Positions 2,417-32,935 of a DNA stretch of 32,935 bases are shown here, in pieces. The notes under the pieces are model-generated. The model had not been told where the DNA came from. It did no database searches and saw only the letters and a list, made by a program, of their open reading frames with translations. The stretch is from a virus, in the IMG/VR virus record IMGVR_UViG_3300010885_006365, positions 1-32,935 of that record; one strand, 5' to 3'. The number at the start of each line of letters is the position of its first letter. Position 1 is the first letter of the stretch. The position numbers were made by a program, and so were the translations under genes.

Positions 2417-2417
2417 G

Positions 2418-3437: not shown

Positions 3438-3450
3438 AGTTATTTTTTTT

Positions 3451-4681: not shown

Positions 4682-4914
4682 TACGCTTCCCATGGTTTTG
4701 CATTAATCAATGCGTCACTAATTACGCTGTCATCCGTACCCCAACTTTGTATTATCTCATTTGGCACAATCCAGTTTCCATCTTTCAAAGAAATGCCTTC
4801 AGCACTTTGTAAAGTATAGTAAATCATATTGTCAGGGTAATTAATACGCCATGAAATTTGGGTAATTGTTTTACCAAATGCCGGTATTGTTTTTTCTAAT
4901 TGAGCTGTAATCAT
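4681..4914 (-). CDS. Small protein between fibre and lysis genes (77 aa)
   Basis: A 77-residue soluble protein (MITAQLEKTIPAFGKTITQI...), probably beta-rich with a Trp-containing core (ISWRINYPDN, DGNWIVPNEIIQSWG). It follows the tail fibre gene by 10 bases and is coupled to the first holin candidate by TAATG. Small proteins here are often fibre chaperones or accessory fibre subunits, but I do not recognise the family. Confidence 0.6.
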   Translation of the reverse strand: MITAQLEKTIPAFGKTITQISWRINYPDNMIYYTLQSAEGISLKDGNWIVPNEIIQSWGTDDSVISDALINAKPWEA

Positions 4915-4924
4915 TTTTTTATTT

Positions 4925-7165: not shown

Positions 7166-7168
7166 AAA

Positions 7169-7603: not shown

Positions 7604-7645
7604 GCTTAAATAATACTTTTTTGATTAAAATTTCTTTATACATAT

Positions 7646-10528: not shown

Positions 10529-10865
10529 TGTATGTTACAAATGTGTTTACTTGTTCGGTGTATTCCGTTGGTGCAAAGTTAGTGGATGGATGCAAATACA
10601 TTAAACCTTTTTCCACAATATTATCATCATCATCTATAATTTTATAATCATATAAACCTGTAGTTTTATTTAAAAAATAGGTATTAACATTTATACTTAC
10701 TTTATCATATCTTAAAGTTCCTGTATTACTTGATAAATTAGTTATAACTATATTTTCTGTAGTCAATCTATTTATAAATATTATTAGCCAATTATTTATT
10801 GCTGTTGCATTTTCTGCACCTGTAAAGTATATATCTTCGGTAAGTCCTTTCGTTAAATGTAGCAT
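10518..10865 (-). CDS. Probable virion structural protein (115 aa)
   Basis: A 115-residue, beta-rich protein (MLHLTKGLTEDIYFTGAENA..., with DKVSINVNTYFLNKTTGLYDYKI and GLMYLHPS) between the tube and portal genes. It may be a head decoration or neck protein; no family recognised. The ATG at 10865 directly follows the T-run of a strong terminator, so the hairpin would sit in its ribosome-binding region on any read-through message. It overlaps the portal gene by 11 bases. Confidence 0.6.
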   Translation of the reverse strand: MLHLTKGLTEDIYFTGAENATAINNWLIIFINRLTTENIVITNLSSNTGTLRYDKVSINVNTYFLNKTTGLYDYKIIDDDDNIVEKGLMYLHPSTNFAPTEYTEQVNTFVTYNGK

Positions 10866-10899
10866 AAAAAAAACCCCCCGACTTTCATCGGTCGGAGGG
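10866..10899 (-). terminator. Strong rho-independent terminator between tube and portal genes
   Basis: On the minus strand CCCTCCGAC (10899-10891) pairs with GTCGGGGGG (10882-10874), 9 bp with one G-T pair, around an 8-base loop, followed by eight T (10873-10866). It stands 21 bases after the stop of the tube gene. It would limit the very abundant capsid/tube message and let only read-through transcripts express the portal, which is needed in about 12 copies per virion. The next start codon follows the T-run without a gap. Confidence 0.9.
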
Positions 10900-10920
10900 A
10901 TATTTGTAAGATTAAAAAAA

Positions 10921-11439
10921 CTATCCTGCTGTTTCTAAAGCCAATCCAATTGCGTTGGTTACTACAAAGAAATCCTCTTGCTCTGTACCGCTAAACTTCA
11001 AAGTATAGCCGTTTTGGTCACCTGCTGCTGCGCCTGTTTTACCTTCCGCAGTTTCAAGATACAAACCTGCCTGCTTACCATACATACGATAAACGCCATC
11101 CTTATCCAATGTTACTACAACCAATTTATTTTTGGCTAATGTAGTTACAATGTTTCTAGTTGTAGCATCCCTTTTGTTGATAGGCAATTCTACTGATTGC
11201 TCATAAAACAAAGTGCCGTTTTCAATGCTACCAGTTGCAGTTGACATTGCTGTAGCTGTACTTTTTGTAGGTACTTCAAACTTATAAAATTTCTTACCAG
11301 TTACCTTTGTAATCCCGGTCACTGTTCCGCTCGCATCGGCAATAGTAAAGTTTGCAAATTCACCGAAGTAAACTGCATTAATACCGCCAATGGCTTCGCG
11401 ACAATCTATTGTATATCCTGCTGTAATTGCACAAGGCAT
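10921..11439 (-). CDS. Probable major tail tube protein
   Basis: A 172-residue beta-rich protein with Cys near the N-terminus (MPCAITAGYTIDCREAIGGI) and a C-terminal GYTLKFSGTEQEDFFVV block, a pattern I associate with Bacteroidota phage tail tube proteins. It lies directly after the capsid gene and before a strong terminator, as expected for a protein made in large amounts. The alternative is a head decoration protein. A GTGGGG/CCCCAC hairpin lies in the gap before it. Confidence 0.55.
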   Translation of the reverse strand: MPCAITAGYTIDCREAIGGINAVYFGEFANFTIADASGTVTGITKVTGKKFYKFEVPTKSTATAMSTATGSIENGTLFYEQSVELPINKRDATTRNIVTTLAKNKLVVVTLDKDGVYRMYGKQAGLYLETAEGKTGAAAGDQNGYTLKFSGTEQEDFFVVTNAIGLALETAG

Positions 11440-11457
11440 AATGTTATATTTTAAAGA

Positions 11458-11481
11458 GTGGGGATGTTACGGCACCCCCAC
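11458..11481 (-). other. Hairpin between capsid and tube genes
   Basis: On the minus strand GTGGGG (11481-11476) pairs with CCCCAC (11463-11458) around a 12-base loop. There is no run of T after it, so it is a poor terminator. It may protect the 3' end of the capsid message or mark a processing site. Confidence 0.5.
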
Positions 11482-11490
11482 ATTGATTAA

Positions 11491-12450
11491 TTAAATTCCT
11501 GCGATAAATTTCACTGTCTCGTTGGTAAATGCAACGTTTACACCCATTTTAAATTCTGCTCTAAAACGTACATCGTTGTTATCTTCGCTATACCATAAAC
11601 GATAAGCAGTTTCTTCGTCTACCAAATCAACCGCCATAGCGATATTACCCAAACTGATTGCATAAGCATCTCCAGTTCCGTTCAAACCATTAACGCTAAC
11701 AATTTCTACATTAGTACCCGGAAGAATGAAAGATTGCGCTTGGCTATCTTGTGGATTGTAAGCAAACAAATTCAACGCTCTGTAAGCTAGGATAAGCAAA
11801 CGATACCAATCGTTACCAACAAAGATTTTAACATCTCCTTTGCTCAAAACAGCAACAGGAATAGCTTTAAAAATACCTTCAGTAGCAGCCACTACGTTTG
11901 AAGCTGTGATAGTTGTAATTGTTGCAACACCTGTGAAAGCAGAAACGTTTGCATCTACTGGACTACCGGCAGCAATCAATTTTTGTAAACCATCAAACTT
12001 ATTAAGGTTTGCAGTTCCTGAAGTTGTATCTCCCTGCCAAATTGCAGTCTCCAATTGTGCAGCGATACGGCTATTCTTTTTAGCTAAATAAGCAGCTTGG
12101 AAATCAGCATTGCCAAAATCTTCGTAAGTAGAACCTGCTTTCAATGCTTCTTGCGTGAAGTACGCTTCCATGTCTTTAGGACAAATTTTCTCTTCTACTT
12201 TAATTTTACCTACTGTAATTGTACGCTGACTAAAAGTAGTTGTACCGCTCGCGTCAAATGAACAAGATTGCGTTCCGAATACTGCATCGGACTCCATCAA
12301 AGGAATAGCGACTGCGCTTTTTACGTTTGGAATTACGATACCATTTGCTAAGATTAATTGCTGTGTTTTTGCTTCAAATACAGCTGAAGTAAGTAATGGT
12401 TTTACAAGCTGTTTAGTATATGCTGATAAACCTGAAAATGCTAGTGCCAT
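11491..12450 (-). CDS. Major capsid protein (HK97 fold)
   Basis: A 319-residue protein that would form the icosahedral shell. Features fitting HK97-type capsid proteins: an N-terminal arm, IPLMESDAVFGTQSCSFDASG near 49-69, an E-loop-like region, a DGLQKLI helix in the middle, VKIFVGNDWYRLLILAYRALN (about 207-227) as a spine segment, and a C-terminal RFRAEFKMGVNVAFTNETV region. Scaffold and protease genes directly precede it, which is the usual head module. The start follows an A-rich leader (ACTAAACAAAAACAAAAAC). Confidence 0.85.
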   Translation of the reverse strand: MALAFSGLSAYTKQLVKPLLTSAVFEAKTQQLILANGIVIPNVKSAVAIPLMESDAVFGTQSCSFDASGTTTFSQRTITVGKIKVEEKICPKDMEAYFTQEALKAGSTYEDFGNADFQAAYLAKKNSRIAAQLETAIWQGDTTSGTANLNKFDGLQKLIAAGSPVDANVSAFTGVATITTITASNVVAATEGIFKAIPVAVLSKGDVKIFVGNDWYRLLILAYRALNLFAYNPQDSQAQSFILPGTNVEIVSVNGLNGTGDAYAISLGNIAMAVDLVDEETAYRLWYSEDNNDVRFRAEFKMGVNVAFTNETVKFIAGI

Positions 12451-12464
12451 GTTTTTGTTTTTGT

Positions 12465-12998
12465 TTAGTTAAATAAAATTGAAAAATCTTTCTTTTGTTC
12501 TGTAAATGTGTTTGAAGTTCTAACTGACTTATCAGCCTCAACGCTTGGAGCATCAACAATCAATTGCGACAATTGCAAAAGTTGGTCAATAACTTTAGTA
12601 GCTTTTTTTAGCTTGCTTTCATACTCTGCAAACTTTGTTTCATATACTGCAAATTTTTCGCTTGTAGTTGTTTCAAATGCTGCAAACTTTGCTGCCATAT
12701 CCATTGGAGGTTCTTCGGTTGCAACTGTTTCAGCAGGTTCATCAACTACAGTGATAACACCATTATCGCCAATCGTTAATTTAGTGCCATCCTTTAATTC
12801 AATATCTCCGGGCAAAGCTGCTGCGCCGTCAATCATTACGATACCGCCAACTTCAAGAGCATCAATCATAACCATACCACCATCCTTTAATTCATATTCG
12901 GTAGGTGGTACTACTGGTGCTGCCATTGTAGGGTCAACTGGTGCGGTTAAATCCGCAAAGTATTCTTTTACTTTTTGTAATATTTCTTTTGCTTCCAT
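12465..12998 (-). CDS. Capsid scaffolding-type protein
   Basis: A 177-residue acidic protein between the prohead protease and the capsid genes. Residues 34-85 contain two or three repeats of an ELKDG-x-MVMIDALEVGG type beta motif; residues 98-155 form a helical, probably coiled-coil segment (AAKFAAFETTTSEKFAVYETKFAEYESKLKKATKV, read in two parts). A beta region plus coiled coil, acidic charge and position fit a scaffold that is removed by the protease during maturation. Its ATG is preceded by the two-part element also found before the protease and tail chaperone genes. Confidence 0.65.
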   Translation of the reverse strand: MEAKEILQKVKEYFADLTAPVDPTMAAPVVPPTEYELKDGGMVMIDALEVGGIVMIDGAAALPGDIELKDGTKLTIGDNGVITVVDEPAETVATEEPPMDMAAKFAAFETTTSEKFAVYETKFAEYESKLKKATKVIDQLLQLSQLIVDAPSVEADKSVRTSNTFTEQKKDFSILFN

Positions 12999-13031
12999 AA
13001 TACTATTATATAAGTTTTTAAATTTTGTTTA
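12999..13031 (-). promoter_or_regulatory. Two-part start-site element, copy 1 (scaffold gene)
   Basis: On the minus strand TAAACAA (13031-13025), 11 bases, then TTATATAATAGTATT (13013-12999) directly against the ATG. The core ATAATAGTATTAT is a perfect inverted repeat around G. TATAAT is 6 bases from the ATG, the spacing of a -10 box for a leaderless message. The same layout recurs at 14014-14046 and 20647-20679. Confidence 0.6.
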
Positions 13032-14013
13032 AAATATTTTTTAATTCCTGCAATTTTAATTCGTCATTGCTTTTTGGTTGCTCATAATCAAACATTCCTT
13101 CAACGCTAAAACCTTTTACTTTACCATCCTTTACTAACTGCCAAACATCATTATTTTCTACATAGAAACTACCAAACCATGTACCATCCGGTAAATCATT
13201 AAACGCCTCAATTGGTTTAATACCTCTATTGCTATCACTGATAAAACTTTCAAACATCGTTACTCCTTGCATCTGCAAATTTTCATCGTGCATTAAATTG
13301 ACATTCTTTTGGTAGCCTTTCTTTGCAAACTTTATAGCTATTTGTTTAATAGTATCGGTAGTAAACTTTACATAATGTTCGCCTAATGATTGGTTATTTC
13401 TATAGATTAATTGCTGCGGTATCATTAAAGGACCAGTAATAATATGCTCATCTTCATTTTGGATAGCAAAAACCATTTGCTCAAACTTGCTACCAATGCT
13501 GCCTAATTCTTTAATCACATCGGCATTATTATCATAGTGTTTAGATATTCCTAATTCTTTTATTTTTTCAACCTTTGCCTTATTGCTACCTGTTGCGTAA
13601 ACTCTGCTTTCAGGAATGCCTAAATCTTTTGCAGTTGATAACATCCCTGCTTTGTCCTGCCTTGCTGAAATTATATAAACAGTATTACCATCTGCAATTT
13701 GTTTTTTTGCTAATTCTTTACCTCGTGATGTGCTTAATGTATCGTCATAATCAAAAGAAACTTTATTACCTGCAAAATGCTGTTCCCACATTGAATTGCA
13801 AATAGCTACAGCTTGTTCGTTATCCTTACCTTCATTAATTACGTAACTAATACAGCGTGGCAAAAACGCATCTTTATGTTCGCCTTTTGTAGGTTCCATA
13901 AATGCTAAAAAATCACGTTTAATAGCTGGCGCATCTACTAACGCAACGAAAGAAACTTCAGCGTTATCGGCTTCCTTATCGTTAATAATTAAATCGTAAA
14001 TTGGTAAGTTCAT
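13018..14013 (-). CDS. Prohead protease (XkdF-like) with an inserted HAD-type phosphatase domain
   Basis: A 331-residue protein built in blocks. Residues 1-40 and about 180-312 form an XkdF/prohead-type serine protease with probable His242 (LMHDE) and Ser303 (KGFSVEG); it would cut scaffold and capsid during maturation. Residues 53-78 carry PRCISYVINEGKDNEQAVAI, a motif seen in other phage head proteins. Residues 84-170 match a HAD hydrolase: DYDDT (Asp88, Asp90, Thr92), IIS (Ser116), Lys145 or 147 and DNNAD (Asp161, Asp165). All catalytic HAD residues are present, so the insert may be active. The gene comes just after the tape measure gene and before the scaffold, and has the two-part start element. 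Confidence 0.8.
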   Translation of the reverse strand: MNLPIYDLIINDKEADNAEVSFVALVDAPAIKRDFLAFMEPTKGEHKDAFLPRCISYVINEGKDNEQAVAICNSMWEQHFAGNKVSFDYDDTLSTSRGKELAKKQIADGNTVYIISARQDKAGMLSTAKDLGIPESRVYATGSNKAKVEKIKELGISKHYDNNADVIKELGSIGSKFEQMVFAIQNEDEHIITGPLMIPQQLIYRNNQSLGEHYVKFTTDTIKQIAIKFAKKGYQKNVNLMHDENLQMQGVTMFESFISDSNRGIKPIEAFNDLPDGTWFGSFYVENNDVWQLVKDGKVKGFSVEGMFDYEQPKSNDELKLQELKNILNKI

Positions 14014-14046
14014 AATAGTATTATATAAAAAATTTAATCTTGTTTA
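14014..14046 (-). promoter_or_regulatory. Two-part start-site element, copy 2 (prohead protease gene)
   Basis: On the minus strand TAAACAA (14046-14040), 11 bases, then TTATATAATACTATT (14028-14014) touching the ATG. It differs from copies 1 and 3 only at the central base of the inverted repeat (C instead of G), while the 11-base spacer differs in sequence but not in length. The upstream half overlaps the stop codon of the tape measure gene. Confidence 0.6.
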
Positions 14047-16092
14047 ATTTATTCGTGCTGCCCTGTTTAATCTTGCTATACGCTCCTGGTTATTAGTGAC
14101 ATCTGTTTCTAATACAAAGGCTCTGCTAGATGCCTGCCCTATGCTATTAATACTTTGTTGGTCTAGAGTAGTTGTTGTAGCTTGTGCTGTTAATGGTGCT
14201 ACTGCTGCTGATACATTTGCTCCTGCCGGTAATGATGCACTTCCACTACTTTTGCCTGGTACTTTTGTAGCAAGTATATTTTTTACCGCTCCAAAACCTG
14301 TGGCTGCTGCTGCAATAACTGCAGGGATAGCTGCTGGGAAACCTAATTTTACACCTGCTGCAATACCTTGATAAGTATTTATTAAAGCATTTGCAACACC
14401 AATAGCTTTGGCTGCTACTGTATCTTGACCTAATAAATTTGCTACATCGCTTGCAGCTTGTTGATAAGATTTTATTAAAGCTAATTTTCCTGCATTTTCT
14501 TTTTCAGTAATACTCAATTTAGCCTTACTTGCTTCATCTGTAATAGCTGTTAATTTATCTTGATGTTGTTGCTCTAATAATGCTAATTCTCCATCTGTTA
14601 ATTCTTTATTTGCTTTTGCTAAATTAAAAGCGTTATTTTCTGCTGTTATTTTTGCTGCTGCTAGTGCATCAATTTTTAATGCAGCTTCTTCAGGATTATC
14701 AGTAGGTAATATTTTATTAACCCTTTCAGCTTCTAATAATTTTGCATCGTTTAAAGCCTTTGTATTTGTTAATTCTTTTGCTGCTGCTTTTGCTGCATTT
14801 GCATCAATTAAAGCCTGTTGTTGAATAGCAGTATTTTCATTTATTAATTTTACTCTTGCATCGTATGTTTCCTTACTAATTAATTTTTGATTGAGTAAAT
14901 CAGCTTCTTTATCTATTTCTTTTTGATTATTAACAGCAATTTCGTTTTGCTTTTTTGTAAAATCGTCTTTAATACGATTAAGCATTGTTTGCGTAATAAG
15001 GTCATCAGTTGCATTTTGTTGTGCTATTCTATTATTCTCAATTTCTCTTTCTTTTGCTGCTCTATCTTCTGCTGCTTTTTGTTTAGCATCATTATTTTTT
15101 TTATTTAATTTAACCGATTGCTCTCCTGCTTTTTCTTCTTTTTTGTTTGCTGCCTCATCTGCTTTTGCTTTATCGGCTGCTACCTTTTCAAGCCTTTTTT
15201 GTTCTTCAATATCTAAAACTTGTTTATCAGTTTTTAACTTTAAAAACTGTTTCATGTCTTCATCATTTAAGCCATTTTGTAGCTTAAATTTTGACCTTAA
15301 AGTTTCTAGTTCATTATCTGCTTGCTTTTGTTTTAACTTATAAATTACAGCTTCTTGACCGCCTTGCGCTTGTAGTATTCTTATTTGATTGCCAATTGCT
15401 GCATTTGTTTTATCTGTTGCCTCTGCTAATTTCGTTTGAGCCTTTTCTGCTGCACTTGCAGAATTTGCCCATGCCATTATTTTATCAACTAAAAAACCAA
15501 CTGCTACAACTAGAGCACCTACACCAGTTGAAATAATTGCACCCCTTAAAACTTTAAATGAATTGCTAGTAGTTACAACTGCAATCCCAAATAATTTTTG
15601 CGCTGAAGTTGCTAATCCTGTTGCTATTGCAAATCCCTTTTGTACAATACTATTTTGTAACACTTGCGCATACAAAATTTTAAAACTATCAATAGCACCA
15701 AATACTCCGCTTATACCTTGCTGCAATGCCATTGCACTTTGCACTTTTAACAAGGCTTCTTCTACCTTTTTATTTTCCCCACCAAATAAACCCATTGCAC
15801 CTTGCAAGGCACTAAATCCACCTACAGCACCCTGTAATGCTCCGCCTAATGCTACAAACTTTTTATCAGGGTTGAATGTATCAGCTACTGCTTTTGCATC
15901 GCCAATAGCATCCTTTAATTTAGCTACTTTTTTTGCTGCATCTGCTGCTTCTTTTGAAGTTTCGCCAAACTGCATAGACATATTAACAAGTTCCTGCGTT
16001 GCCTCTCTTAAAACTTGTTTATATGATTTTACCGATTGTTCAGCATTACCGCTGTCGGTTGTTAGTTTAAATGCTATTTCTTGGGTTGCCAT
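14044..16092 (-). CDS. Tape measure protein
   Basis: A 682-residue protein that sets tail length and is likely ejected with the DNA. It has N-terminal helices (EQSVKSYKQVLREATQELVN, about 18-37), hydrophobic Gly/Ala-rich segments (about 85-205, with GVGALVVAVGFLVDKIMAW near 191-209), a long charged coiled coil (about 215-530, rich in Lys, Glu, Ala and Asn) and a second hydrophobic segment near 585-615 (AAIPAVIAAAATGFGAV). From the usual scale of about 1.5 angstrom per residue, a tail of roughly 100 nm is expected. The ATG overlaps the preceding stop. No lysozyme or peptidase domain is visible. Confidence 0.85.
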   Translation of the reverse strand: MATQEIAFKLTTDSGNAEQSVKSYKQVLREATQELVNMSMQFGETSKEAADAAKKVAKLKDAIGDAKAVADTFNPDKKFVALGGALQGAVGGFSALQGAMGLFGGENKKVEEALLKVQSAMALQQGISGVFGAIDSFKILYAQVLQNSIVQKGFAIATGLATSAQKLFGIAVVTTSNSFKVLRGAIISTGVGALVVAVGFLVDKIMAWANSASAAEKAQTKLAEATDKTNAAIGNQIRILQAQGGQEAVIYKLKQKQADNELETLRSKFKLQNGLNDEDMKQFLKLKTDKQVLDIEEQKRLEKVAADKAKADEAANKKEEKAGEQSVKLNKKNNDAKQKAAEDRAAKEREIENNRIAQQNATDDLITQTMLNRIKDDFTKKQNEIAVNNQKEIDKEADLLNQKLISKETYDARVKLINENTAIQQQALIDANAAKAAAKELTNTKALNDAKLLEAERVNKILPTDNPEEAALKIDALAAAKITAENNAFNLAKANKELTDGELALLEQQHQDKLTAITDEASKAKLSITEKENAGKLALIKSYQQAASDVANLLGQDTVAAKAIGVANALINTYQGIAAGVKLGFPAAIPAVIAAAATGFGAVKNILATKVPGKSSGSASLPAGANVSAAVAPLTAQATTTTLDQQSINSIGQASSRAFVLETDVTNNQERIARLNRAARIN

Positions 16093-18185
16093 TAATATAT
16101 TTTATTTATTACTTTTAAAAATTCTGCCTTTGTTGTTTCGTTTGCATTTGGTGTGTAGTCTATTAATTTAACTAACCGATATAAACCACCATCAATAAAA
16201 TAGTATTTTGAAAAATCTAGGTTAAACACATCTACATCGTTTAGTTTTACTTCGCAACTCAACAGCTTACTGTCTTTATCGGTTATCTCTGCCATGTAAG
16301 GACTATAATAAACATTAAATTGATTAACATTTAAACCACCTGCAAGTAAACTAAAATATAGTTCCTTTGGCACTCCGAATTGTATGTCATCACTTGGCGC
16401 ATCTGGAGAATTTAAATGTCCACAGTATGGGTAAACAGTAGATGAAGCCAATGTACTTGTATTAGATGTATTGCGTAAATTCCAACTACTAACCCCTGTT
16501 ATTTTTTTGTATTGTAGTATCCTAATATTACTATCTACTCGTTCCTCTGTATAAGGGTTATTACCGCTGCGTTTAAATATTGTGCTATAGACTTTATCCT
16601 CGCCTAAATAGCCTACCAATGGAGTAGGACTAAATATTAATTCTAGCTTTGCTGTTTCTTTTGCAAATTCAAATGCGCTATCGTAGATTAATTCCCCATA
16701 CCCCTGATTATATGCCTTTTGATATAAGTCATTATAATAGTCACTATCATTTTTAAATTTAAAAGAATAGTATCGGCTGTTTAATTCGCTCATTGGCTTA
16801 ACCTTAATAGGTTTGCTTCTATCAATCTTTAATGTCCAATCTTCTACATTGTTTAAATAATAATCTACATAAGGTTTGATAACTAAATGTTTATCGTTAA
16901 ACCTATCCTCATCAATATACAGATTAAACAGCTTTATAATTGAAGTAAAGAAATCTTTTTGAAGCACATTTTTAGGCAGCATTTCATTCATTATTACCAT
17001 CTCATTACCTAAATACTCAACAGTTTGTGGTATGGCTGATTGTATCTCAAAAAATCCATCATTGTATTTAATATATTGCCCTGCTGTTAATGTGATATTT
17101 GTTTCAACTCTTAAACTTACTGTATCATTTTTAGTCAAGGAAATTGAGTAGCCATCATCAATAGCCTGATCCCATATGTATGTTGTGCCACTAGTAATAG
17201 TTCTCGTATTTACTGCTGTTCCATTTTTATATAAATGAAATTTGATAAACTTACCGCTGCCATAGGTTACATTGATTGCAAAATTTAATGTCCAAAATAA
17301 ATTAAAGGATATTGTTGGTTCGCCAACGTAAGTAAATAAACCATTATCAGTTGTAGTAAATAATGGATAAAGACTATCTAATAAATTTTGTGTAACTATT
17401 TGAATGCCTATTGTAGTGTTATCAATAACATTGTAAGCATTTGTAATACTACGTTGACCATTTACAAGGTTACTAGTTTTTAAGGTCATTTTTGCCCTGT
17501 TAAAAGGCACTATTAAATTTTTAAACCTTGTAGTATTAAATAGGCTACATTCATAAGTATACCCTGCTGCTGCAAAGATTTTATCTATATATTCTTTTAC
17601 AAATAAAGCCGGCTTAAAAGCATTTTGAGTAAAGCCATGTTTACCACCTAATACGTTGCCACTTGTTAACCCTACATTACCGTAGTCAATCAAAGGATAA
17701 ACATAACCACTACCGCCTGCATTATCCCAACTGCTTACTATATTAGCACCCCACGCATGGTTATAAGCTGAAAAATCTAAGTCCTCTAGTTTAGATGCAC
17801 CTAATTTTGAAACAAAACCGCCCAACTCACCTAATACACTACATTCATATTCTACATTATCTCCATCAATTATAATTTCTAATAGCCTGAATGTGCCTTT
17901 AATTAAAGTCATATCGTCAATATCAATCCTACATTTGGCTGTTCTTGCTGCGTTAAAATTATAGCCAATGTTTGCGCCTGTATTGTTGGTATCGTTGCTA
18001 TTATTAAAGTCAAAAATATTGCCTAATAAGTTGTTATTTTTAGCAGTTCCAGGAAGTATAATAGTCTTGGTAAATGGTGTAGCCTTACTGTCTATATTTC
18101 TAATATCATCAATAGCGTAGGTAATTTGATTACTCAATTGAGCATTAATATCCAGTAAATTATCTTCTATATAAATCTTTGTCAT
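16092..18185 (-). CDS. Large tail-tip / baseplate-like protein
   Basis: A 697-residue protein starting MTKIYIEDNLLDINAQLSNQ, followed by RNIDSKATPFTKTIILPGTAKNN (about 29-51), a start block I associate with tail-tip proteins of Bacteroidota phages. The rest is beta-rich with many Tyr and Asn, e.g. YECSLFNTTRFKNLIVPFNR. It is coupled to the 377-residue gene before it and to the tape measure gene after it by overlapping start and stop codons. A role in the tail tip below the tape measure is inferred. Confidence 0.6.
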   Translation of the reverse strand: MTKIYIEDNLLDINAQLSNQITYAIDDIRNIDSKATPFTKTIILPGTAKNNNLLGNIFDFNNSNDTNNTGANIGYNFNAARTAKCRIDIDDMTLIKGTFRLLEIIIDGDNVEYECSVLGELGGFVSKLGASKLEDLDFSAYNHAWGANIVSSWDNAGGSGYVYPLIDYGNVGLTSGNVLGGKHGFTQNAFKPALFVKEYIDKIFAAAGYTYECSLFNTTRFKNLIVPFNRAKMTLKTSNLVNGQRSITNAYNVIDNTTIGIQIVTQNLLDSLYPLFTTTDNGLFTYVGEPTISFNLFWTLNFAINVTYGSGKFIKFHLYKNGTAVNTRTITSGTTYIWDQAIDDGYSISLTKNDTVSLRVETNITLTAGQYIKYNDGFFEIQSAIPQTVEYLGNEMVIMNEMLPKNVLQKDFFTSIIKLFNLYIDEDRFNDKHLVIKPYVDYYLNNVEDWTLKIDRSKPIKVKPMSELNSRYYSFKFKNDSDYYNDLYQKAYNQGYGELIYDSAFEFAKETAKLELIFSPTPLVGYLGEDKVYSTIFKRSGNNPYTEERVDSNIRILQYKKITGVSSWNLRNTSNTSTLASSTVYPYCGHLNSPDAPSDDIQFGVPKELYFSLLAGGLNVNQFNVYYSPYMAEITDKDSKLLSCEVKLNDVDVFNLDFSKYYFIDGGLYRLVKLIDYTPNANETTKAEFLKVINKIY

Positions 18186-19318
18186 TATCGTAGTTGACTA
18201 TTGCGCTGTGAATTAAAACTAAATTCAATCTCTAAAGGCTTAAGCCTATCATTGACATACTTGTTAAATGTGTAGCTGCTGTTTGTAATTGTAACAGGGT
18301 AATAATAGCCATCAATCTCCATCAGTATTTGTGGCGACATAATCAAATCGGCTGCCCATTGCCATTCTGCATCGGTCAAAGCTGAAGCCGTTAGTTTATA
18401 TTTAAAGGTGCTAGTATTATAATAGTTAACATTGCCTTCGTAGTATTTATTGCCACTTAAATAGTTAACCGCTGTATTGGTAAACCTGTAGTCTGTTTGC
18501 TCAAAATCTTTGCGCTTTAAATCCATTGACAGCTTACTAACTAAATCAAATCTAAGGCTATCAAATACTCCCCAACCATTTAAAAAATGTACATTGATTG
18601 GAGTATATTTAGGATTGCAGGTATTTGTAACCTTAAATGTTTCTGTTCCATCAATATCAATAGTATAGTATTTTGCTGCTGTTGTACTTATTCCGAAGCC
18701 TTGTAAAATACCTTCGCTACCAATGTTTAATTGATAAAAGCCGGCTGTTTTGCTTACTGTTGCAGAAGCTACCAATGTATTGCTACCATCATAAGTTTTT
18801 ACATTTATGTTTTTAGTAGCAGTCAAATAAAGTCCTATAAATAACTTTTCGCCATTATCAGTATTGGCATAATTAGGTCGATTAGTAAAACATTTATTTG
18901 CCCTATCTGCTATAGTTGTTAATCTACGTTTAAATAATGGTGCGTTAAAATTATAAGCTACTGTGTTACCGCTTGCCATGTTTGTAGTTGTTACCCCGCT
19001 CAATTCTTCACCGTAGCGCACTTGGTAAGTTAAACCAACCTCACCGCTTACATTTGGTTGGTCAACTATAAAATCACTAATAGGATCAAACCATTCGTAG
19101 GTCATTGAATTACGCACAATATTTGCAGCGTTAAAATAACCTCTTGAAGTTGTAGGGTCAGCAAACTGCCTTACTCTTATTTTTTGCGTTCCATTTATCC
19201 AAACATCAAACACATATTTAAATTCAATGTCTGCACTATTGGTGCTACTTACAACGTGCCATAATTCATCTTGTACTGTACTGCCACTTGCAGGAGTATT
19301 AACTATTGTTATTGCCAT
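18185..19318 (-). CDS. Tail protein, probably distal tail or tip
   Basis: A 377-residue beta-rich protein. The first 170 residues (IVNTPASGSTVQDELWHVVS, FKYVFDVWINGTQKIRVRQF) look like fibronectin-like domains; the C-terminal part (KLSMDLKRKDFEQTDYRFT, EWQWAADLIMSPQILMEIDG, VNDRLKPLEIEFSFNSQRNS) resembles a tail-tip subunit. Its neighbours are the neck-like protein (210 aa) and the large tip protein. The family is recognised only by general pattern. Confidence 0.55.
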   Translation of the reverse strand: MAITIVNTPASGSTVQDELWHVVSSTNSADIEFKYVFDVWINGTQKIRVRQFADPTTSRGYFNAANIVRNSMTYEWFDPISDFIVDQPNVSGEVGLTYQVRYGEELSGVTTTNMASGNTVAYNFNAPLFKRRLTTIADRANKCFTNRPNYANTDNGEKLFIGLYLTATKNINVKTYDGSNTLVASATVSKTAGFYQLNIGSEGILQGFGISTTAAKYYTIDIDGTETFKVTNTCNPKYTPINVHFLNGWGVFDSLRFDLVSKLSMDLKRKDFEQTDYRFTNTAVNYLSGNKYYEGNVNYYNTSTFKYKLTASALTDAEWQWAADLIMSPQILMEIDGYYYPVTITNSSYTFNKYVNDRLKPLEIEFSFNSQRNSQLR

Positions 19319-19320
19319 GA

Positions 19321-19953
19321 TTATTGTACAATGTTTATTTTAATTTTATTTCCAATCATTTCAGCTAAATCTGCCGGTAATTTTTCAAATGCTATCGCTA
19401 TTGCCTCATCCAAATAATGCGTTGCTTTAATACCATATTTTTTAATTAAGAAAATCAATTGTTCTGTTTGCAAATCAATTAAGGACATTTTCTTTTGCTC
19501 GTTTTTTTGAATGCCACTTTTATTATTTTGTATAGTGCTAATCTTTGCCTTACCACTTTCAATGTACTTTTTTATGGATGCCCTGCCATCTGCACTCATA
19601 CCATAATTTTTAAATTGATAAGGACTATCAGGCGCATTTTTACTACTTGTTACACCATGTACCCCTTTATTTGGATAATCAAAATAGCTAGGCATTAATA
19701 CATCCATTCCCAATTTATCCGTATAAACTTTTAATTCTACTTTACTTGCTAGGTTACCAGATGCTGTAACATTTTTACGCTTCATTACATCTGCCAATAT
19801 CTTTTGAAAGTCTAACCCATATTCATAAAATAACTTATTTACACCAGTATAGAAATTACTATCTATTAATTCTACATCATGTAAATTCTCATTAATGCCG
19901 TCTATACTTTTTAAGTTAGCTGCTTGCGCTGCTGCTATGCTTTTGTAAGCCAT
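19321..19953 (-). CDS. Possible neck / tail completion protein
   Basis: A 210-residue protein with KRKNVTASGNLASKVELKVY (about 58-77), a pattern found in HK97 gp10-like tail completion proteins (basic residues followed by an SG-x-L strand), and a helical C-terminus (LIDLQTEQLIFLIKKYGIKA). Its start lies inside the -1 frame extension of the chaperone gene, as the gene after lambda G/GT does. Assignment is tentative. Confidence 0.45.
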   Translation of the reverse strand: MAYKSIAAAQAANLKSIDGINENLHDVELIDSNFYTGVNKLFYEYGLDFQKILADVMKRKNVTASGNLASKVELKVYTDKLGMDVLMPSYFDYPNKGVHGVTSSKNAPDSPYQFKNYGMSADGRASIKKYIESGKAKISTIQNNKSGIQKNEQKKMSLIDLQTEQLIFLIKKYGIKATHYLDEAIAIAFEKLPADLAEMIGNKIKINIVQ

Positions 19954-20204
19954 CGTTTTCTATTTTCATTTTTAAGTATAGCAAATCATTTAGAAAGTTT
20001 ATTGCTGTTAAATTCCAAACCTCATTAACAGATATTCCCTCAAAGTCTGCGACCATTTTGGCATTGTAAACCCACCCAAAAGACTGTTGAAATTCACTAA
20101 GGCTTCCGTTACTGTCGCTCTCTCCATCCCTTTCTTTGTCGCTTCCTGAACTAAATAAGGCTGGATAACCTGCATTAAGATTTGATATTGTAGATAAAAA
20201 AAAA
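19916..20204 (-). CDS. -1 frame extension of the tail assembly chaperone (GT-like)
   Basis: If ribosomes slip back one base on the T9 run at 20204-20196, the reading frame continues about 95 codons to a TAA at 19916-19918, well past the frame-0 stop at 20008. The new part contains SLSEFQQSFGWVYNAKMVAD, FEGISVNEVWNLTAINFLND and LLYLKMKIENDG, which read like conserved protein and continue 90 bases beyond the frame-0 stop with no other gene on offer. This matches lambda gpG/gpGT: a short and a long chaperone from one gene upstream of the tape measure gene. A homopolymer sequencing error is the alternative. Confidence 0.65.
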
Positions 20205-20646
20205 CCGCTGCATGATAAGCAGCCTCAAAATCTACGTTCTCCATGTCCTTTGCAATATCTTGATGTTCTCGGTGGTAAACCTTACCTCTCCAATTTATTG
20301 GCTCTGCAATCGTTGCTAATAGCTTGTGGATGTCATTGATAATATCCTTTGCAAACGTGATGCCTTCAACGTACTTGGATGCTTTTTGTAGGTCATAATT
20401 CAATCGGTAAATTCTGCCATTTACAAACAGATACTTTGATGGCTTACCATTCATTAATTCCTTTCCAAATATCTCAAACGCTTTTACAATCTTGGCGCAC
20501 TCTTTATTAAAGGCTTTCATTTTCATTGCCTCAACTTGTTCAGGTACTTTGCCAGTAAGTACTCCAACCATTTTAATTGACTTGTCAAAGTCAATATCTT
20601 CGCCTTTGCTAATAAAATATAATTCCTGAAATTGTTTAACCTTCAT
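20008..20646 (-). CDS. Probable tail assembly chaperone (gpG-like), frame-0 product
   Basis: A 212-residue protein, helical, with MKVKQFQELYFISKGEDIDF at the start and FAKDIINDIHKLLATIAEPI near 98-117. The position between terminase and tail genes upstream of the tape measure gene, and the frameshift site at codons 149-151 (GTT TTT TTT T), identify it as a tail assembly chaperone that would coat the tape measure protein before the tube forms. The last 62 frame-0 codons overlap the -1 extension; both frames there are unusually rich in G and C at third positions for this genome, as expected when two frames are constrained. Its ATG carries the two-part start element. Confidence 0.65.
   Translation of the reverse strand: MKVKQFQELYFISKGEDIDFDKSIKMVGVLTGKVPEQVEAMKMKAFNKECAKIVKAFEIFGKELMNGKPSKYLFVNGRIYRLNYDLQKASKYVEGITFAKDIINDIHKLLATIAEPINWRGKVYHREHQDIAKDMENVDFEAAYHAAVFFYLQYQILMQVIQPYLVQEATKKGMERATVTEALVNFNSLLGGFTMPKWSQTLREYLLMRFGI
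20196..20204 (-). promoter_or_regulatory. T9 slippery site for -1 frameshifting
   Basis: Minus-strand codons GTT TTT TTT TAT give a run of nine T. Both Phe codons can re-pair perfectly after a one-base backward slip. I see no obvious strong downstream hairpin within the first 20 bases, so slipping would depend on the run itself. Confidence 0.6.
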
Positions 20647-20679
20647 AATACTATTATATAAATTTTAAGTAATTGTTTA
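20647..20679 (-). promoter_or_regulatory. Two-part start-site element, copy 3 (tail chaperone gene)
   Basis: On the minus strand TAAACAA (20679-20673), 11 bases, then TTATATAATAGTATT (20661-20647) touching the ATG. The upstream half begins at the TAA stop of the large terminase gene. It could start the late (virion) transcript separately from the terminase genes. Confidence 0.6.
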
Positions 20680-21846
20680 CAAGATATAATATTGACCGCT
20701 GCCCTTATTTTCTATAAAGCATTTGTTTGCTAGTGCCAATGCATTGACTGTATCGTCATGGAACCCAGTAGGTGCAGAGTATCTAACCCCTGTAGATGTG
20801 AATAAATATTCAAATATTTCTAATTCTGTTTTTATCTCATTGTCAGGATAACCCAAATCTCCTTTATGTATTGCCGATGCTAAGCCTTCCATTAATTGCT
20901 GCTTACTTGTGCTAGTGTATTTAAAGCCAGTCATATCATTAAAGTATCTTTGCAAGTCTTCTACAATGGCATCACCCACTCCTGTACTATCAATAAAAAT
21001 ATGTTTGTGTTTAGGGATGCGTTTAATTGTTTCCCTTGTTTGCATCCAGTCCTTTTGAAAACGTTCATAGTGCGCCACATTGCCGTTAACATCTAAACCA
21101 ATGATAACAGTCCAATCAAAGGACTTCGCCAAATCTATGCCGTAGTATCTAGCCTCTAAATTGCTCAAAGGTTTAACGCATTTAGCTATGTGCTCACTAC
21201 CAAAAGGGTTGGCAGCATTTTCCATTGCATTAGCCATGTACTCCTGCTCAAAAACTGCATGTGGAAGTTGCGCCCTTGCTGCATCTATTTCGGCAGGGTC
21301 AATATAAGGGTTATCATAAGTAGTAAATTTAAAAGTCTCCCATTCAGGACTACCATTTTTAAGGAATAAACTATAAAAATAATTCTTACCTCTTGGAGTG
21401 GATAAAAAGATGGCTTTGCCTTTGTAGTCTGTTAATGTAGGTCGTATGCTATTCTGCCATCCATCTTGTAAGTTAGGTATGAATGAAGCCTCATCTATAA
21501 TAGCCAAATGAAATTTTAAACCTCTAAGCGCATCTAATCGTTCGCCTGTAAAGAAACGAATTACACCGCCTGTTATAAACTGAATAACTAAATCACTTTC
21601 ATTCTTTTTATATAGGTTATCAGGAAGTAGTTTGCAAATCTCTTGAAAGAATATTTTGCCTAACTGATAGGTTGGTGTTATATAGGCTACTTGCTGCCTT
21701 GACACTCCGCATTCAATAGCAATGTTTTGACTGATTAATGATTTACCAAACCTTCTTCCTGCCATCATTACCCTAAACCTTGCCTCACTATCTAAAACCT
21801 TTTGTTGTGCAGGATGTGCTTCATTAAGTTTTATTTTTTGCTTCAT
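20677..21846 (-). CDS. terL: Terminase large subunit
   Basis: The 389-residue ATP-driven DNA packaging motor and nuclease. The ATPase domain has Walker A AGRRFGKS (29-36), Walker B IIDEA (116-120) and STPRG (149-153) as coupling motif. The nuclease domain has the acidic triad Asp238 (YYGIDLAKSFDW), Asp286 (FIDSTGVGD) and Asp364/365 (GFHDDTVNALALA). It overlaps the small subunit gene by 23 bases. The length is somewhat short but complete. It would dock on the portal, which is encoded 10 kb further on. Confidence 0.97.
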   Translation of the reverse strand: MKQKIKLNEAHPAQQKVLDSEARFRVMMAGRRFGKSLISQNIAIECGVSRQQVAYITPTYQLGKIFFQEICKLLPDNLYKKNESDLVIQFITGGVIRFFTGERLDALRGLKFHLAIIDEASFIPNLQDGWQNSIRPTLTDYKGKAIFLSTPRGKNYFYSLFLKNGSPEWETFKFTTYDNPYIDPAEIDAARAQLPHAVFEQEYMANAMENAANPFGSEHIAKCVKPLSNLEARYYGIDLAKSFDWTVIIGLDVNGNVAHYERFQKDWMQTRETIKRIPKHKHIFIDSTGVGDAIVEDLQRYFNDMTGFKYTSTSKQQLMEGLASAIHKGDLGYPDNEIKTELEIFEYLFTSTGVRYSAPTGFHDDTVNALALANKCFIENKGSGQYYIL

Positions 21847-22219
21847 AGCTAATAACTATTTCGGTAACTGTTTCGTCAATTATTGTAGTGCTTTCTTTTG
21901 GCTTACCATAAACACGGCTAAGCAATGTATCTAAACTATATAGCGAACCTTTTTTAAGGCTTGTAAACATTGCGTTGGCTACAGTTTTTTCTAATATGGT
22001 TGCCTTATCGTTTTGGTAAATCTCTTTTAATTCATCTACAGTTGAAGCCATTAATATTTGGATGCAATCGTTAATCTCGCTTAACTTGTAACCTTCAATA
22101 TTTAAATTATTAACCAACTTTCTAGGTCTGCCGTTAGGGTTGCCAGTTTCGCCTTTCTGCCATCTGTTAAGCTTACCGCCTGTTGCACCATTGCTTTTGC
22201 CATCAACTAAAATAGCCAT
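21824..22219 (-). CDS. terS: Terminase small subunit-like protein (DUF5681-type N-terminus)
   Basis: A 131-residue protein with WQKGETGNPNGRPRK (20-34), the basic loop characteristic of DUF5681 proteins found next to large terminases, followed by a helical region. It would recognise the packaging start on the phage DNA and load it onto TerL. It starts one base after the methyltransferase gene stop and overlaps terL by 23 bases. Confidence 0.7.
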   Translation of the reverse strand: MAILVDGKSNGATGGKLNRWQKGETGNPNGRPRKLVNNLNIEGYKLSEINDCIQILMASTVDELKEIYQNDKATILEKTVANAMFTSLKKGSLYSLDTLLSRVYGKPKESTTIIDETVTEIVISYEAKNKT

Positions 22220-22747
22220 TTACTTTAATTTAAATAATTTAGCATAAGGAGTAGGATAGGATAAGTTTTTAATCATCTCATATCCTTTGCCTTGAAAAAA
22301 TTCAATCCATTTGTTTTGAGTCTTAATGTTTATATGCCCCCAATCACCATCCCAATCGGTAACCTCACTTGTGCTGCTATGTAAAATATAAGTAGGCTTA
22401 ATCGCTTTAAATAGCTTGTTTAATTCTTTGTCAGTCATGTGTTCGCTTACCTCAATAAAAAGCATTAAATCGGTTGTAATTGGCTTACTGATAATTTTAA
22501 GATGTGGCGCATATTCTTTGATATAGTCAGTATGTGCCTGCCATATTTCGTAAGCACTTGTATTATATCCTGCGTTATGAAATGCAGCCGTATAAACTCC
22601 TGTTCCTGCGCCATAATCCATTACGCTTTTTATAGGGTAATCTTTTACCTGGTGTGCTGTTACATCTGCAAGGTTAACAAAGTCAGGATTATGGAAACCA
22701 ATACCCCAACCTAATTCCTTTGCTAAAAATTCATCATCTTTTATCAT
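22220..22747 (-). CDS. SAM-dependent methyltransferase (class I)
   Basis: A 175-residue protein with motif I SVMDYGAGTGVYTAAF (about 41-56), motif II acidic SAYEIW (about 64-69), and LMLFIEVSEHM (about 94-104), typical of small class I methyltransferases. No target-recognition region for DNA is visible, so the substrate may be a sugar or small molecule. The adjacent glycosyltransferase gene suggests they act on the same glycan. Its ATG overlaps the preceding stop by 4 bases. C-terminal PTPYAKLFKLK completes the fold. Confidence 0.75.
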   Translation of the reverse strand: MIKDDEFLAKELGWGIGFHNPDFVNLADVTAHQVKDYPIKSVMDYGAGTGVYTAAFHNAGYNTSAYEIWQAHTDYIKEYAPHLKIISKPITTDLMLFIEVSEHMTDKELNKLFKAIKPTYILHSSTSEVTDWDGDWGHINIKTQNKWIEFFQGKGYEMIKNLSYPTPYAKLFKLK

Positions 22748-22992
22748 CTATATATGTTTAATAAAAATTCAATTACGCAAACAGGGCAGCTATTATTATA
22801 ACGATAGTAAGCATCCTTTTTGGCTCTGTATGCTTCAAGTAGTTCAGCTTGCACATCGTGATTAAAGTTTACTAATTCGCCTGTCTTAATATAAAAATCA
22901 TAGTAGTGCCTATGCTTTGCAAAGGTCGCTGTATGCCTGTCTTCTACTATCGTTGACTTCGGTAAAGTTGTATTTTGTTTTCGCCCACTCAT
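22744..22992 (-). CDS. Conserved-looking small protein with CPVC motif (82 aa)
   Basis: An 82-residue protein with KHRHYYDFYIKTGELVNFNH (26-45) and NNSCPVCVIEFL (67-78), the latter like half of a zinc site. No function recognised. Its first 83 bases overlap the end of the glycosyltransferase gene in another frame, which is long for this genome, yet no later Met exists, so either the overlap is real or a non-ATG start is used. Its stop overlaps the methyltransferase start. Confidence 0.55.
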   Translation of the reverse strand: MSGRKQNTTLPKSTIVEDRHTATFAKHRHYYDFYIKTGELVNFNHDVQAELLEAYRAKKDAYYRYNNSCPVCVIEFLLNIYR

Positions 22993-23902
22993 ATAATGCG
23001 TTCCCTAATTGCTCCCTCAGGTTGGGATTGTTGACTAATAAATTAATATAATTAAACCAATCGCTTTGCTTATTAACCCATAATACTGGCGCATCGTAAT
23101 CTATATTATATGGTGCTACGTTGCTACATATTACCGGCAATCGTTTTGCTGCTGCTTCTAGTATCTTAAGATTAGACTTGCAAGCGTGCCATTCGCTATT
23201 CTCTAAAGGGATAACGCAAATATCTGCATTCTCATACATACTCATGTAGGTTGCAGGTGGCTGTGATGGCATTATTTCAGTAGCACTATAAGCATTTACT
23301 AACCTATCCCAAATTTGTTTAGATGCCATGTTTGATGCATTATATCCACCAATAACCAATTCTATATTTGGTATCTGCCTAACCCTTTTAAATGGCTGCT
23401 TTAATATGTTTAAATCATGTTCGTGAGTTGCTGAACCGCACCACATAACTCGGACTTTATCGCTTGCTCTACGTTGCTCTGTAAATTGATTTTCGCCATA
23501 AGGTAAGCAGTTAGGCAATACCATTGCTTTACCATTAAACTTTATTACTTTATCCAATAATGCCGTATTAGTAACCGTAACTAAATCAGCTTCAGCAATG
23601 TTAGCTTCAATCTGTTCACCTATCTTTTGGTAACCTTCATAGCTTAAATGATTAGCCGGTAACTTCCACCAATCATCTATGTCCATTACTACCTTTGCGC
23701 CTGTCTTATCCTTTAATCGTTTAATACTTTCACCTAAGTAGTTGATACGATTATATACGATAATATCCGTAGCAGTATCTTCACGCTGCTCTGTTATCAT
23801 GTTTGCTACATAACAGTTAACATCATTCATATAACCTAATGGCAGTAGTATCCTATGATAATCGCACCCATTGTTTTGTCTTACTAACCCTATGATTTCC
23901 AT
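22910..23902 (-). CDS. Glycosyltransferase, GT-B fold (GT4-like)
   Basis: A 330-residue enzyme with a GT-B layout: N-terminal GLVRQNNGCDYHRILLPLGY (5-24), VMDIDDWWKLP in the first domain, and in the second VMWCGSATHEHDLNIL (about 158-173), NADICVIPLENSEWHACKSN (about 227-246) and LKILEAAAKRLPVICSNV, the donor-binding part of GT4-like enzymes. It would move a sugar from a nucleotide-sugar to an unknown acceptor. No polymerase or modified-base synthesis gene is present, so virion or host-surface glycans are as likely as DNA. Confidence 0.85.
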   Translation of the reverse strand: MEIIGLVRQNNGCDYHRILLPLGYMNDVNCYVANMITEQREDTATDIIVYNRINYLGESIKRLKDKTGAKVVMDIDDWWKLPANHLSYEGYQKIGEQIEANIAEADLVTVTNTALLDKVIKFNGKAMVLPNCLPYGENQFTEQRRASDKVRVMWCGSATHEHDLNILKQPFKRVRQIPNIELVIGGYNASNMASKQIWDRLVNAYSATEIMPSQPPATYMSMYENADICVIPLENSEWHACKSNLKILEAAAKRLPVICSNVAPYNIDYDAPVLWVNKQSDWFNYINLLVNNPNLREQLGNALYEWAKTKYNFTEVNDSRRQAYSDLCKA

Positions 23903-31459: not shown

Positions 31460-31853
31460 TGTGTAGTTTTAAATAGTGCATAATAGATGAATGATGAAGA
31501 TTTAGTGCGCACCCTATCTCGCGATACATAAAGCCATAATTATAAGCTTCATAACAGAATTTTTGCCTCATTTTAGTATAAGCTATTGACCTATCCTTCT
31601 TTTTTAAATAGTCAGGAGTAATGCCATTTGTGTCGCAAAAATTGGCAATATATGCGTCAATATTATCAATAGGTATATACTTTACTTTTTGATTAAGATA
31701 TACTATTTTTTCAACTTGTACTATTTTTTCAACTTCAATAGGCTTCCAATGCTTTAGCAAAACTTGCAAAATACGAGACTTTTGATAATCGCTGCAATCT
31801 GTATAAAGTTGAATGTAGTATAATATATCTTCTAATTGTTTATCTATGTCCAT
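31434..31853 (-). CDS. Stand-alone DnaA domain IV-like DNA-binding protein
   Basis: A 139-residue protein without ATPase motifs. The C-terminal half (RSIAYTKMRQKFCYEAYNYG, then FMYREIGCALNLHHSSIMHYLKL, about 108-130) matches the helix-turn-helix of DnaA domain IV, where the bacterial form reads EIG ... RDHSTV. The N-terminal half is a helical region with EVEKIVQVEKIVYL repeats. It may bind DnaA-box-like sites in the phage origin or compete with host DnaA. It starts inside the end of the exonuclease gene. Confidence 0.65.
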   Translation of the reverse strand: MDIDKQLEDILYYIQLYTDCSDYQKSRILQVLLKHWKPIEVEKIVQVEKIVYLNQKVKYIPIDNIDAYIANFCDTNGITPDYLKKKDRSIAYTKMRQKFCYEAYNYGFMYREIGCALNLHHSSIMHYLKLHNETTNQPA

Positions 31854-32482
31854 TTCTTTTTTAATTTTTCAAAAGTTTCATTAATATATTGACCGGCTTG
31901 CTCAATCTTTTTTAGTAGATATTCCATGTCTTCAAAGTTCCTATCTATGCGAATAATAAACATTTTTAAACCTTCAGGCATATCCGGGCAGTAGCTTACA
32001 AAATCGCAATACTCACGCTCTGATACTATCATGTCGCTTTGACATTGCCAATAATACTCCCGGTACTTTAGTTTAAAATATTCCTGCGAATTTACTAAGC
32101 CATAATTCAAGTGATTTGTAAAATTGTATGGACATTTTATTTGCACAATGCCAGTAGCAGTAAGCCCATCAGGAGTACCACCATATAAACCTGCAATGGC
32201 TTCAATGTATGTCGTTGGCTCTACTTTTTTACCTGTGATACCTTCGTAGTATTTAATGGCTTCAGCTTCCATTTCTAATCCGTATGTTGTTGCATCACTT
32301 TTAAAATCACGTTGGATGCCAGTTAATCTTTCTGCTAATTTAGCATTTAGATATTCTTTAGTAGTTGCTGATAACTGCCCTTTGTCCTTTACTAATTTTG
32401 GTTCTACTGTTAAATTCCAAATCGTTGATGATGTTAGTTTGCCCATCCTTGCTGCAAACCATTCTGTTGAGTATTGTTCCAT
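31844..32482 (-). CDS. YqaJ/lambda-exonuclease-type recombinase nuclease
   Basis: A 212-residue exonuclease that would resect double-stranded DNA to give ssDNA for the ERF annealing protein. Motifs: WFAARMGKLTSS (8-19), YGLEMEAEAIKYYEG (67-81), GGTPDG with Asp105 (101-106) and VQIKCP (113-118), then QCQSDMIV. In lambda exonuclease the last motif is ELK with catalytic Glu129; here Gln114 (CAA) takes that place. Either the family tolerates QxK or activity is changed. Overlaps both neighbours. Confidence 0.85.
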   Translation of the reverse strand: MEQYSTEWFAARMGKLTSSTIWNLTVEPKLVKDKGQLSATTKEYLNAKLAERLTGIQRDFKSDATTYGLEMEAEAIKYYEGITGKKVEPTTYIEAIAGLYGGTPDGLTATGIVQIKCPYNFTNHLNYGLVNSQEYFKLKYREYYWQCQSDMIVSEREYCDFVSYCPDMPEGLKMFIIRIDRNFEDMEYLLKKIEQAGQYINETFEKLKKKWT

Positions 32483-32694
32483 CCTTTTTTTCTCCCATTT
32501 TTTTGTGGTGCAAAATATTGTTTCACTCTATAATTAAGATTGATTTTTTTTAAATAAATCTCAACCTTTGCCAATTCGTATTTATCGTAAAATATAGCTT
32601 CAAGCCAGTTAGTTGTACGCTTTAATAACATTGGATTGGTATTTAAATTTATTACTGATATAAAAAATTCGTTCTCTTTAATTTGGTAGTGCAT
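32434..32694 (-). CDS. Small protein between ERF and exonuclease genes (86 aa)
   Basis: An 86-residue basic protein (MHYQIKENEFFISVINLNTN...), with a beta start, a helical middle (LKRTTNWLEAIFYDKYELAK) and a Lys/Asn/Gln-rich tail. It overlaps the ERF end by 17 bases and the exonuclease start by 49 bases. Its position suggests a role with these recombination proteins. No family recognised; the tail frame runs through two A7 stretches, so its end could be affected by a base error. Confidence 0.55.
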   Translation of the reverse strand: MHYQIKENEFFISVINLNTNPMLLKRTTNWLEAIFYDKYELAKVEIYLKKINLNYRVKQYFAPQKNGRKKGWNNTQQNGLQQGWAN

Positions 32695-32935
32695 TTTCTA
32701 AACTTTTAATGGTTTGTAAATCTTTTTGTCTAAACGTTAAATGTGCTTTTGCTTTTGTAAATACATCCTTTTCGCCTGCATTATATCTATTTAATAAGCT
32801 AATCATCTGCTCATCCGTAATAATCTTTAAAGTAGGTTCTTTTGGTGCTTCTACAGTATCAGCATCCTTTGTATCATCAATCAAGAATAAACCATTTAAA
32901 GCATACTTTCTAGCATAGCTACTAGATGCGCCAAA
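32678..32935 (-). CDS. erf: ERF-family annealing protein, C-terminal part (enters from the window edge)
   Basis: The frame enters at 32935 with FGASSSYARKYALNGLF and ends LENALPN at 32678, 85 residues. The first 60 residues correspond to residues 101-160 of the partial ERF gene at 1-481, with two changes (Thr to Pro, Asn to Asp). The remaining 25 residues complete the protein to about 185 residues. A TTG-started reading from 32884 is an artefact of the window edge. It overlaps the next gene by 17 bases. Confidence 0.8.
   Translation of the reverse strand, partial: FGASSSYARKYALNGLFLIDDTKDADTVEAPKEPTLKIITDEQMISLLNRYNAGEKDVFTKAKAHLTFRQKDLQTIKSLENALPN
32755..32935. repeat. Right copy of the near-identical terminal direct repeat
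   Basis: Aligns with bases 1-181 at 170 of 181 positions, no gaps. See the left copy for the mismatch positions and interpretation. Confidence 0.85.

What the first reader, a model, noticed from the sequence alone, without database searches (positions are those of the whole stretch)
32755..32935. Window ends are two alleles of one ERF segment
1-181 and 32755-32935 match at 170 of 181 bases with mainly silent differences. This suggests a circular or terminally redundant genome of about 32,754 bp from a mixed population, or ongoing exchange at a recombinase gene.
Basis: partly seen in the sequence, partly recalled or inferred. Interest (0 to 1): 0.5.

Follow-up and report, generated by a model that had tools for sequence, protein, structure and literature searches.

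The report
Phage contig wrapping onto itself
The two ends of this virus sequence are two slightly different versions of the same stretch of one recombination gene, most likely because the assembly of a circular phage genome was cut open at a spot where strains in the sample differ; this is an ordinary effect.

Summary
In detail: window 1-181 and 32755-32935 match at 170 of 181 bases. Collapsing the overlap restores one intact 185-aa ERF gene. In relatives ERF gives a single match and the genes from the two window ends lie on either side of it. The window is most likely one complete unit of about 32,754 bp, opened inside ERF.

The 181 bp are not a fixed terminal repeat: relatives are opened at different genes. 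Of 23 near-full-length relatives, 6 have exact end overlaps, 9 inexact ones (5 of these differ at only 1-2 sites) and 8 none. In 8 of the 9 a border of 126-127 identical bases, on both sides only in G012, points to assembly at k = 127. The window (12 and 11 bases) lacks that mark.

Both alleles look functional (2 amino-acid changes, dN/dS about 0.08). 'Circular genome from a mixed population' is supported; a physical terminal redundancy and a special role of the recombinase gene are not. COBRA passages (PMC10914622) describe closely related cases. Two near-identical contig pairs differ only in patches, so local allele exchange is plausible, but not at ERF in particular.

The parts
1..181 (-). 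ERF segment, allele A (left contig end; codons 101-160 of the joined gene and the first base of codon 161)
   Evidence: 170/181 match with 32755-32935; same reading frame
32755..32935 (-). ERF segment, allele B (right contig end)
   Evidence: as above
1..481 (-). 5' part of the ERF gene (start codon at 481)
   Evidence: ORF open at the window edge; joined protein PF04404 E 5.8e-32, phrog_155 Erf-like annealing protein E 2.7e-38
32678..32935 (-). 3' part of the ERF gene (stop at 32678)
   Evidence: ORF open at the window edge; with 481..182 it gives 185 aa without an internal stop
31844..32482 (-). YqaJ-like exonuclease, lies just after ERF across the join
   Evidence: PF09588, phrog_149 exonuclease; its match starts 527-551 nt after the ERF match start in relatives
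3474..3899 (-). phage lysozyme, lies before ERF on the other side of the join
   Evidence: PF00959 E 6.7e-42; before ERF in relatives
218..23297 (.). stretch also held as contig IMGVR_UViG_3300027712_000156 (G001, 23,080 bp); its end at 218 is 48 bases from the nearest A/B difference (170)
   Evidence: 100% over 218-10481; 6 mismatches over 10218-23297

Best explanation
The window is one complete turn of a circularly closing phage genome (about 32,754 bp) assembled from a sample that held at least two versions of the phage. The assembler could not choose between two alleles of the middle to 3' part of the ERF annealing-protein gene. It extended one contig end through allele A and the other through allele B, so the contig overlaps itself by 181 bp at 94% identity instead of closing with an exact repeat. 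Shown: the match, the restored gene, one ERF match per related record, gene order across the join in relatives, inexact end overlaps at other genes in relatives. Inferred: that both alleles were in one sample, and the assembler step.
For: The collapsed overlap gives an intact 185-aa ERF with either allele, which aligns to 20 chosen relatives from residue 1 to 180 or 185 at 61-69% identity. Of the 23 loci shown (those of the fetched loci that share at least 6 window proteins; the rest were not shown), 18 have lysozyme before and YqaJ after ERF; L004, L007 and L026 begin 290-2,816 bases before ERF, L047 ends in ERF, L074 has another arrangement. One ERF match in 25 of 25 records. End overlaps in 23 near-full-length relatives: 6 exact, 9 inexact, 8 none. 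A 126-127 bp identical border in 8 of the 9 inexact cases. G001 ends exactly 127 bp past its last mismatch with the window. COBRA passages (PMC10914622) name within-population variation as a cause of contig breaks and maxK end sequences at breaks due to repeats.
Against: The window's own identical borders are 12 and 11 bases, not k-sized, so the assembler step is not shown; relative G016 (0 and 8) is alike. Only G012 has the k-sized border on both sides, and 5 of the 9 inexact overlaps (G003, G017, G018, G019, G021) differ at only 1 or 2 positions, so they are weak parallels. No reads; no other contig bearing either allele was found (0 hits in 3 exact-pattern scans; the tool may leave out near records). 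8 of 23 relatives show no end overlap. A strongly diverged second ERF could be missed by the searches.
Confidence: 0.9

Rival explanations
1. Physical terminal redundancy: the virion DNA really begins and ends in ERF with a 181-bp repeat that has drifted.
For: Ends match at 94% over 181 bp.
Against: Relatives that close are opened at portal, tape-measure, tail, helicase-region, HNH and other places, so no fixed end is seen in the group. The two copies of a replicated terminal repeat are normally identical (general knowledge). A headful-type permuted genome would be opened anywhere and is compatible with the best explanation.
Confidence: 0.03
2. Ongoing homologous exchange: allele B is a tract imported from a related phage, by ERF or another pathway, in an otherwise near-identical population, and the assembly broke at the tract. 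This adds an origin of the alleles to the best explanation rather than replacing it.
For: Two near-identical contig pairs differ only in patches: G001 vs window 6 differences in 23,080 bp, in two clusters; G013 vs G002 39 differences, all within 817 bp of the 12,700 bp compared, and none in the 10,829 bp of L004 vs L005. 0 of 20,000 shuffles were as clustered in either pair. Rad52-like recombinases, an Erf among them, work on diverged sequences (PMC3945230, abstract and section headings).
Against: Only 2 of the near-identical pairs listed were tested for clustering. Assemblies join strains only where these share long identical stretches, which favours patchy pairs. The flanks of allele B are not seen beyond 12 bases. 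The tracts found elsewhere are in tail-region, glycosyltransferase and portal genes, not ERF.
Confidence: 0.35
3. Two separate ERF genes in a larger genome or tandem arrangement, of which the window is a fragment.
For: The contig does not close exactly.
Against: One ERF match in 25 of 25 related records. 15 of 23 near-full-length relatives (33-38 kb) overlap themselves at their ends. Each window end holds only a piece of ERF, in register with the other.
Confidence: 0.03

Closest known systems
Metagenome contigs broken by repeats or within-population variation (COBRA, PMC10914622; passages seen)
   Same: Break at a variable site; most relatives with end overlaps show the k-sized (127) borders; COBRA sets apart query contigs whose two ends extend into closely related sequences
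   Different: The maxK end sequences are reported there for breaks due to repeats; the window itself has borders of 12 and 11 bases, and it already contains both alleles within one contig
Erf-like single-strand annealing protein, PF04404 / phrog_155
   Same: Joined protein matches both models, PF04404 well above its cut-off; next to a YqaJ-type exonuclease
   Different: Nothing unusual found
Uncultivated IMG/VR phages such as IMGVR_UViG_3300043466_000290 (G002) and 3300034167_000106 (G004)
   Same: Same gene order; best tblastn pieces 84-85% identical for gene 11491-12450 and 71% for the terminase; close with an exact 127-bp overlap
   Different: Opened in the portal (G002) or tape-measure (G004) gene, not ERF

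Membership tests
Circularly closing contig | Ends overlap in register so that genes close across the join | tested here: met
   185-aa ERF restored with either allele
Circularly closing contig | Gene order across the join is contiguous in relatives | tested here: met
   18 of 23 loci shown; the other 5 end too near ERF or have another arrangement
Circularly closing contig | Exact end overlap as assemblers leave it | tested here: not met
   exact overlap 0; inexact 181 bp at 93.9%
Contig broken at a de Bruijn bubble | k-sized identical borders on both sides of the differing tract | tested here: not met
   12 and 11 bases in the window; met on both sides in G012 and on one side in 7 more of 9 inexact relatives
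Virion with fixed direct terminal repeat | Ends at the same gene in relatives | tested here: not met
   ends fall at different genes
Virion with fixed direct terminal repeat | Read ends pile up at the termini | not testable with these tools
   no reads held
Erf annealing-protein family | Match to PF04404 above its gathering score | tested here: met
   111.2 bits, cut-off 25, residues 3-133
Mixed-population allele pair | Both alleles in one read set | not testable with these tools
   no reads; pattern scans of viral contigs found no other carrier

The most novel reading that the evidence does not exclude
In this phage group, near-identical genomes living together differ only in short tracts of about 5-8% divergence, imported by homologous exchange. 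Inexact contig-end overlaps in public virus collections, which tests for exact end repeats pass over, would then be a ready-made record of allele-exchange tracts that could be surveyed gene by gene.
Probability: 0.25. Interest if true: 0.4.

Novelty: already known. Interest (0 to 1): 0.12.

Why it matters
It indicates that this record is very likely a complete phage genome although its ends do not match exactly. A test that demands an exact overlap of the two ends misses it, as it would 9 of 23 near-full-length relatives. Otherwise the finding is ordinary.

Tried and rejected
Special role of ERF as a cut or exchange site: 1 of 15 closed relatives (G018, opened at the start of a distant ERF) is opened at ERF; the chance of at least one is 0.26 with a rough per-genome probability (ERF positions of the others). 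Counting the window as well would look like enrichment, but the window was chosen for that feature.

Search for other carriers of either allele: three exact-pattern scans of viral contigs gave nothing. The first pattern ended on a base that only allele A has; the other two lie in stretches shared by both alleles. A YqaJ-protein scan gave 56 loci, none near-identical to the window (best segment 69%). A search of G001 with window 32434-32935 gave nothing, as expected from where G001 ends.

k-sized border rule for the window itself: tested, not met (12 and 11 bases).

Host: gene 11491-12450 (in the position of a major capsid gene, my inference) found no relative in genome contigs (19 stretches matched a pattern, none confirmed) and in the phage records only Nonlabens phages P12024S/L (4 records, 30.7% identity over 47% of the query). 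A Bacteroidota host is only a weak guess. The terminase matched 1,176 phage records, all below 60% identity. Megablast of window 1-25000 against phage records: no match.

Limits of the surveys: one search covered 23 of the 25 related records with handles; G001 and G013 were left out as short. One search realigned 8 of the 9 inexact cases; G007 was done. One search shows only loci with at least 6 window proteins and only plus-strand best hits. One search lists more near-identical pairs than the two tested for clustering; some (L009/L011, L010/L011) are 100% identical over their shared stretch. Of five paper searches the last two gave nothing that I used; passages of PMC11443906 were seen and not used.

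Full report
Observation. Window 1-181 and 32755-32935 match at 170 of 181 bases without a gap. The best other ungapped match of the end 181-mer in the window is 81 of 181. The 11 differences lie between bases 13 and 170; on the minus strand they fall in 10 codons of one open frame, 8 silent and 2 changing an amino acid (134 T/P, 157 N/D). dS is 0.26 and dN 0.021. At residue 157 all 20 ERF proteins compared (20 chosen loci, some near-identical to each other) have D, as in allele B; at residue 134 none has the residue of either allele. Both alleles therefore look like working, selected genes, not sequencing errors.

The gene. Taking one copy of the overlap, 481..1 followed by 32754..32678 (or 481..182 followed by 32935..32678) reads as 558 nt, 185 aa, with no internal stop. 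The protein matches PF04404 ERF (E 5.8e-32) and phrog_155 Erf-like annealing protein (E 2.7e-38). Across the join it is followed by an 86-aa ORF and a YqaJ-type exonuclease. The window otherwise reads as a tailed phage: portal, terminase and tape-measure families, DnaB helicase, lysozyme, DNA methylase and glycosyltransferase.

Relatives. A scan with the joined ERF kept the best 80 loci. I show the 23 that share at least 6 window proteins; ERF gave one hit in each. In 18 of the 23, lysozyme lies before ERF and YqaJ after it, as the joined window predicts; L004, L007 and L026 begin too near ERF, L047 ends in ERF and L074 has another arrangement. All 25 related virus records searched whole give one ERF match, some of them partial or distant. 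So the two window ends are neighbours, and two ERF genes are not expected.

Ends of relatives. I compared the first and last up to 3 kb of 23 near-full-length relatives (28-38 kb). Six have exact overlaps: 127 bp in G002, G004, G008 and G009, 87 bp in G010, 99 bp in G020. Nine have inexact overlaps: G003, G007, G012, G014, G016, G017, G018, G019 and G021, from 132 to 1,187 bp and from 83% to 99.5% identity; five of these (G003, G017, G018, G019, G021) differ at only 1 or 2 positions. Eight have none: G005, G006, G011, G015, G022, G023, G024 and G025. The joins that could be placed on window genes lie at portal, tape-measure, tail, helicase-region, HNH, gene 10921 and, in G018, ERF; G014 and G016 are opened about 1.1 kb before ERF; G019, G020 and G021 have no window gene at the join, but their ERF lies elsewhere. 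So there is no fixed terminus.

Mechanism. In 8 of the 9 inexact cases the differing tract is bordered on at least one side by 126 or 127 identical bases, on both sides only in G012. That is what I expect when a de Bruijn assembler with k = 127 walks into a bubble. G001, a 23,080-bp contig that equals window 218-23297 apart from 6 mismatches, ends exactly 127 bp past its last mismatch (23170 to 23297); its other end (218) lies 48 bases from the nearest A/B difference (170). G013 and G002 differ at 39 sites, all within 817 bp of the portal gene, ending 127 bp before the end of G002. COBRA (PMC10914622; passages seen) reports that assemblers leave maxK end sequences where repeats break a contig, tests within-population variation as another cause of breaks, and sets apart query contigs whose two ends extend into closely related sequences. 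The window is the same kind of object. Its own borders are 12 and 11 bases, which the k rule does not explain; its assembler is unknown to me.

Population or exchange. The two near-identical contig pairs tested (G001 and window; G013 and G002) differ only in clusters (0 of 20,000 shuffles as clustered in either). That fits local exchange between related phages, and Rad52-like recombinases are reported to exchange diverged DNA (PMC3945230; abstract and section list seen). But other near-identical pairs were not tested, assemblies join strains only where they are identical, which favours patchy pairs, and nothing singles out ERF. I hold exchange as plausible and unproved.

Verdict. Very likely a complete, circularly closing phage genome of about 32,754 bp, opened at a variable site in a mixed population. 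Real, well explained, of low interest.

Noticed in passing
window 24247-24319 (-): A tRNA gene with an odd anticodon loop: ARAGORN gives no amino acid and a four-base anticodon (aatt); Rfam tRNA 45.4 bits. Among 16 relative stretches scanned (parts of genomes) only L021 has a tRNA, tRNA-Gly.
   Followed up: partly
window 1-12 and 171-181: The identical borders of the two alleles are 12 and 11 bases, nearly symmetric, not the 126-127 seen in most relatives with inexact ends. Unexplained.
   Followed up: partly
window 16128-16188 and 23143-23170: The only differences between G001 and the window: two clusters of three, 5 of 6 silent, in gene 16092-18185 and in a glycosyltransferase gene.
   Followed up: yes
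L085/L104 (G002:32703-33519): An 817-bp tract with 39 differences in the portal gene, in a contig pair otherwise identical over the stretches compared. G012 also has its two-allele ends in the portal gene.
   Followed up: partly
window 32434-32694 (-): An 86-aa ORF between ERF and YqaJ without a Pfam match. In relatives the YqaJ match starts 527-551 nt after the ERF match start, here 753 nt after collapsing the overlap, so it looks like a small inserted gene.
   Followed up: no
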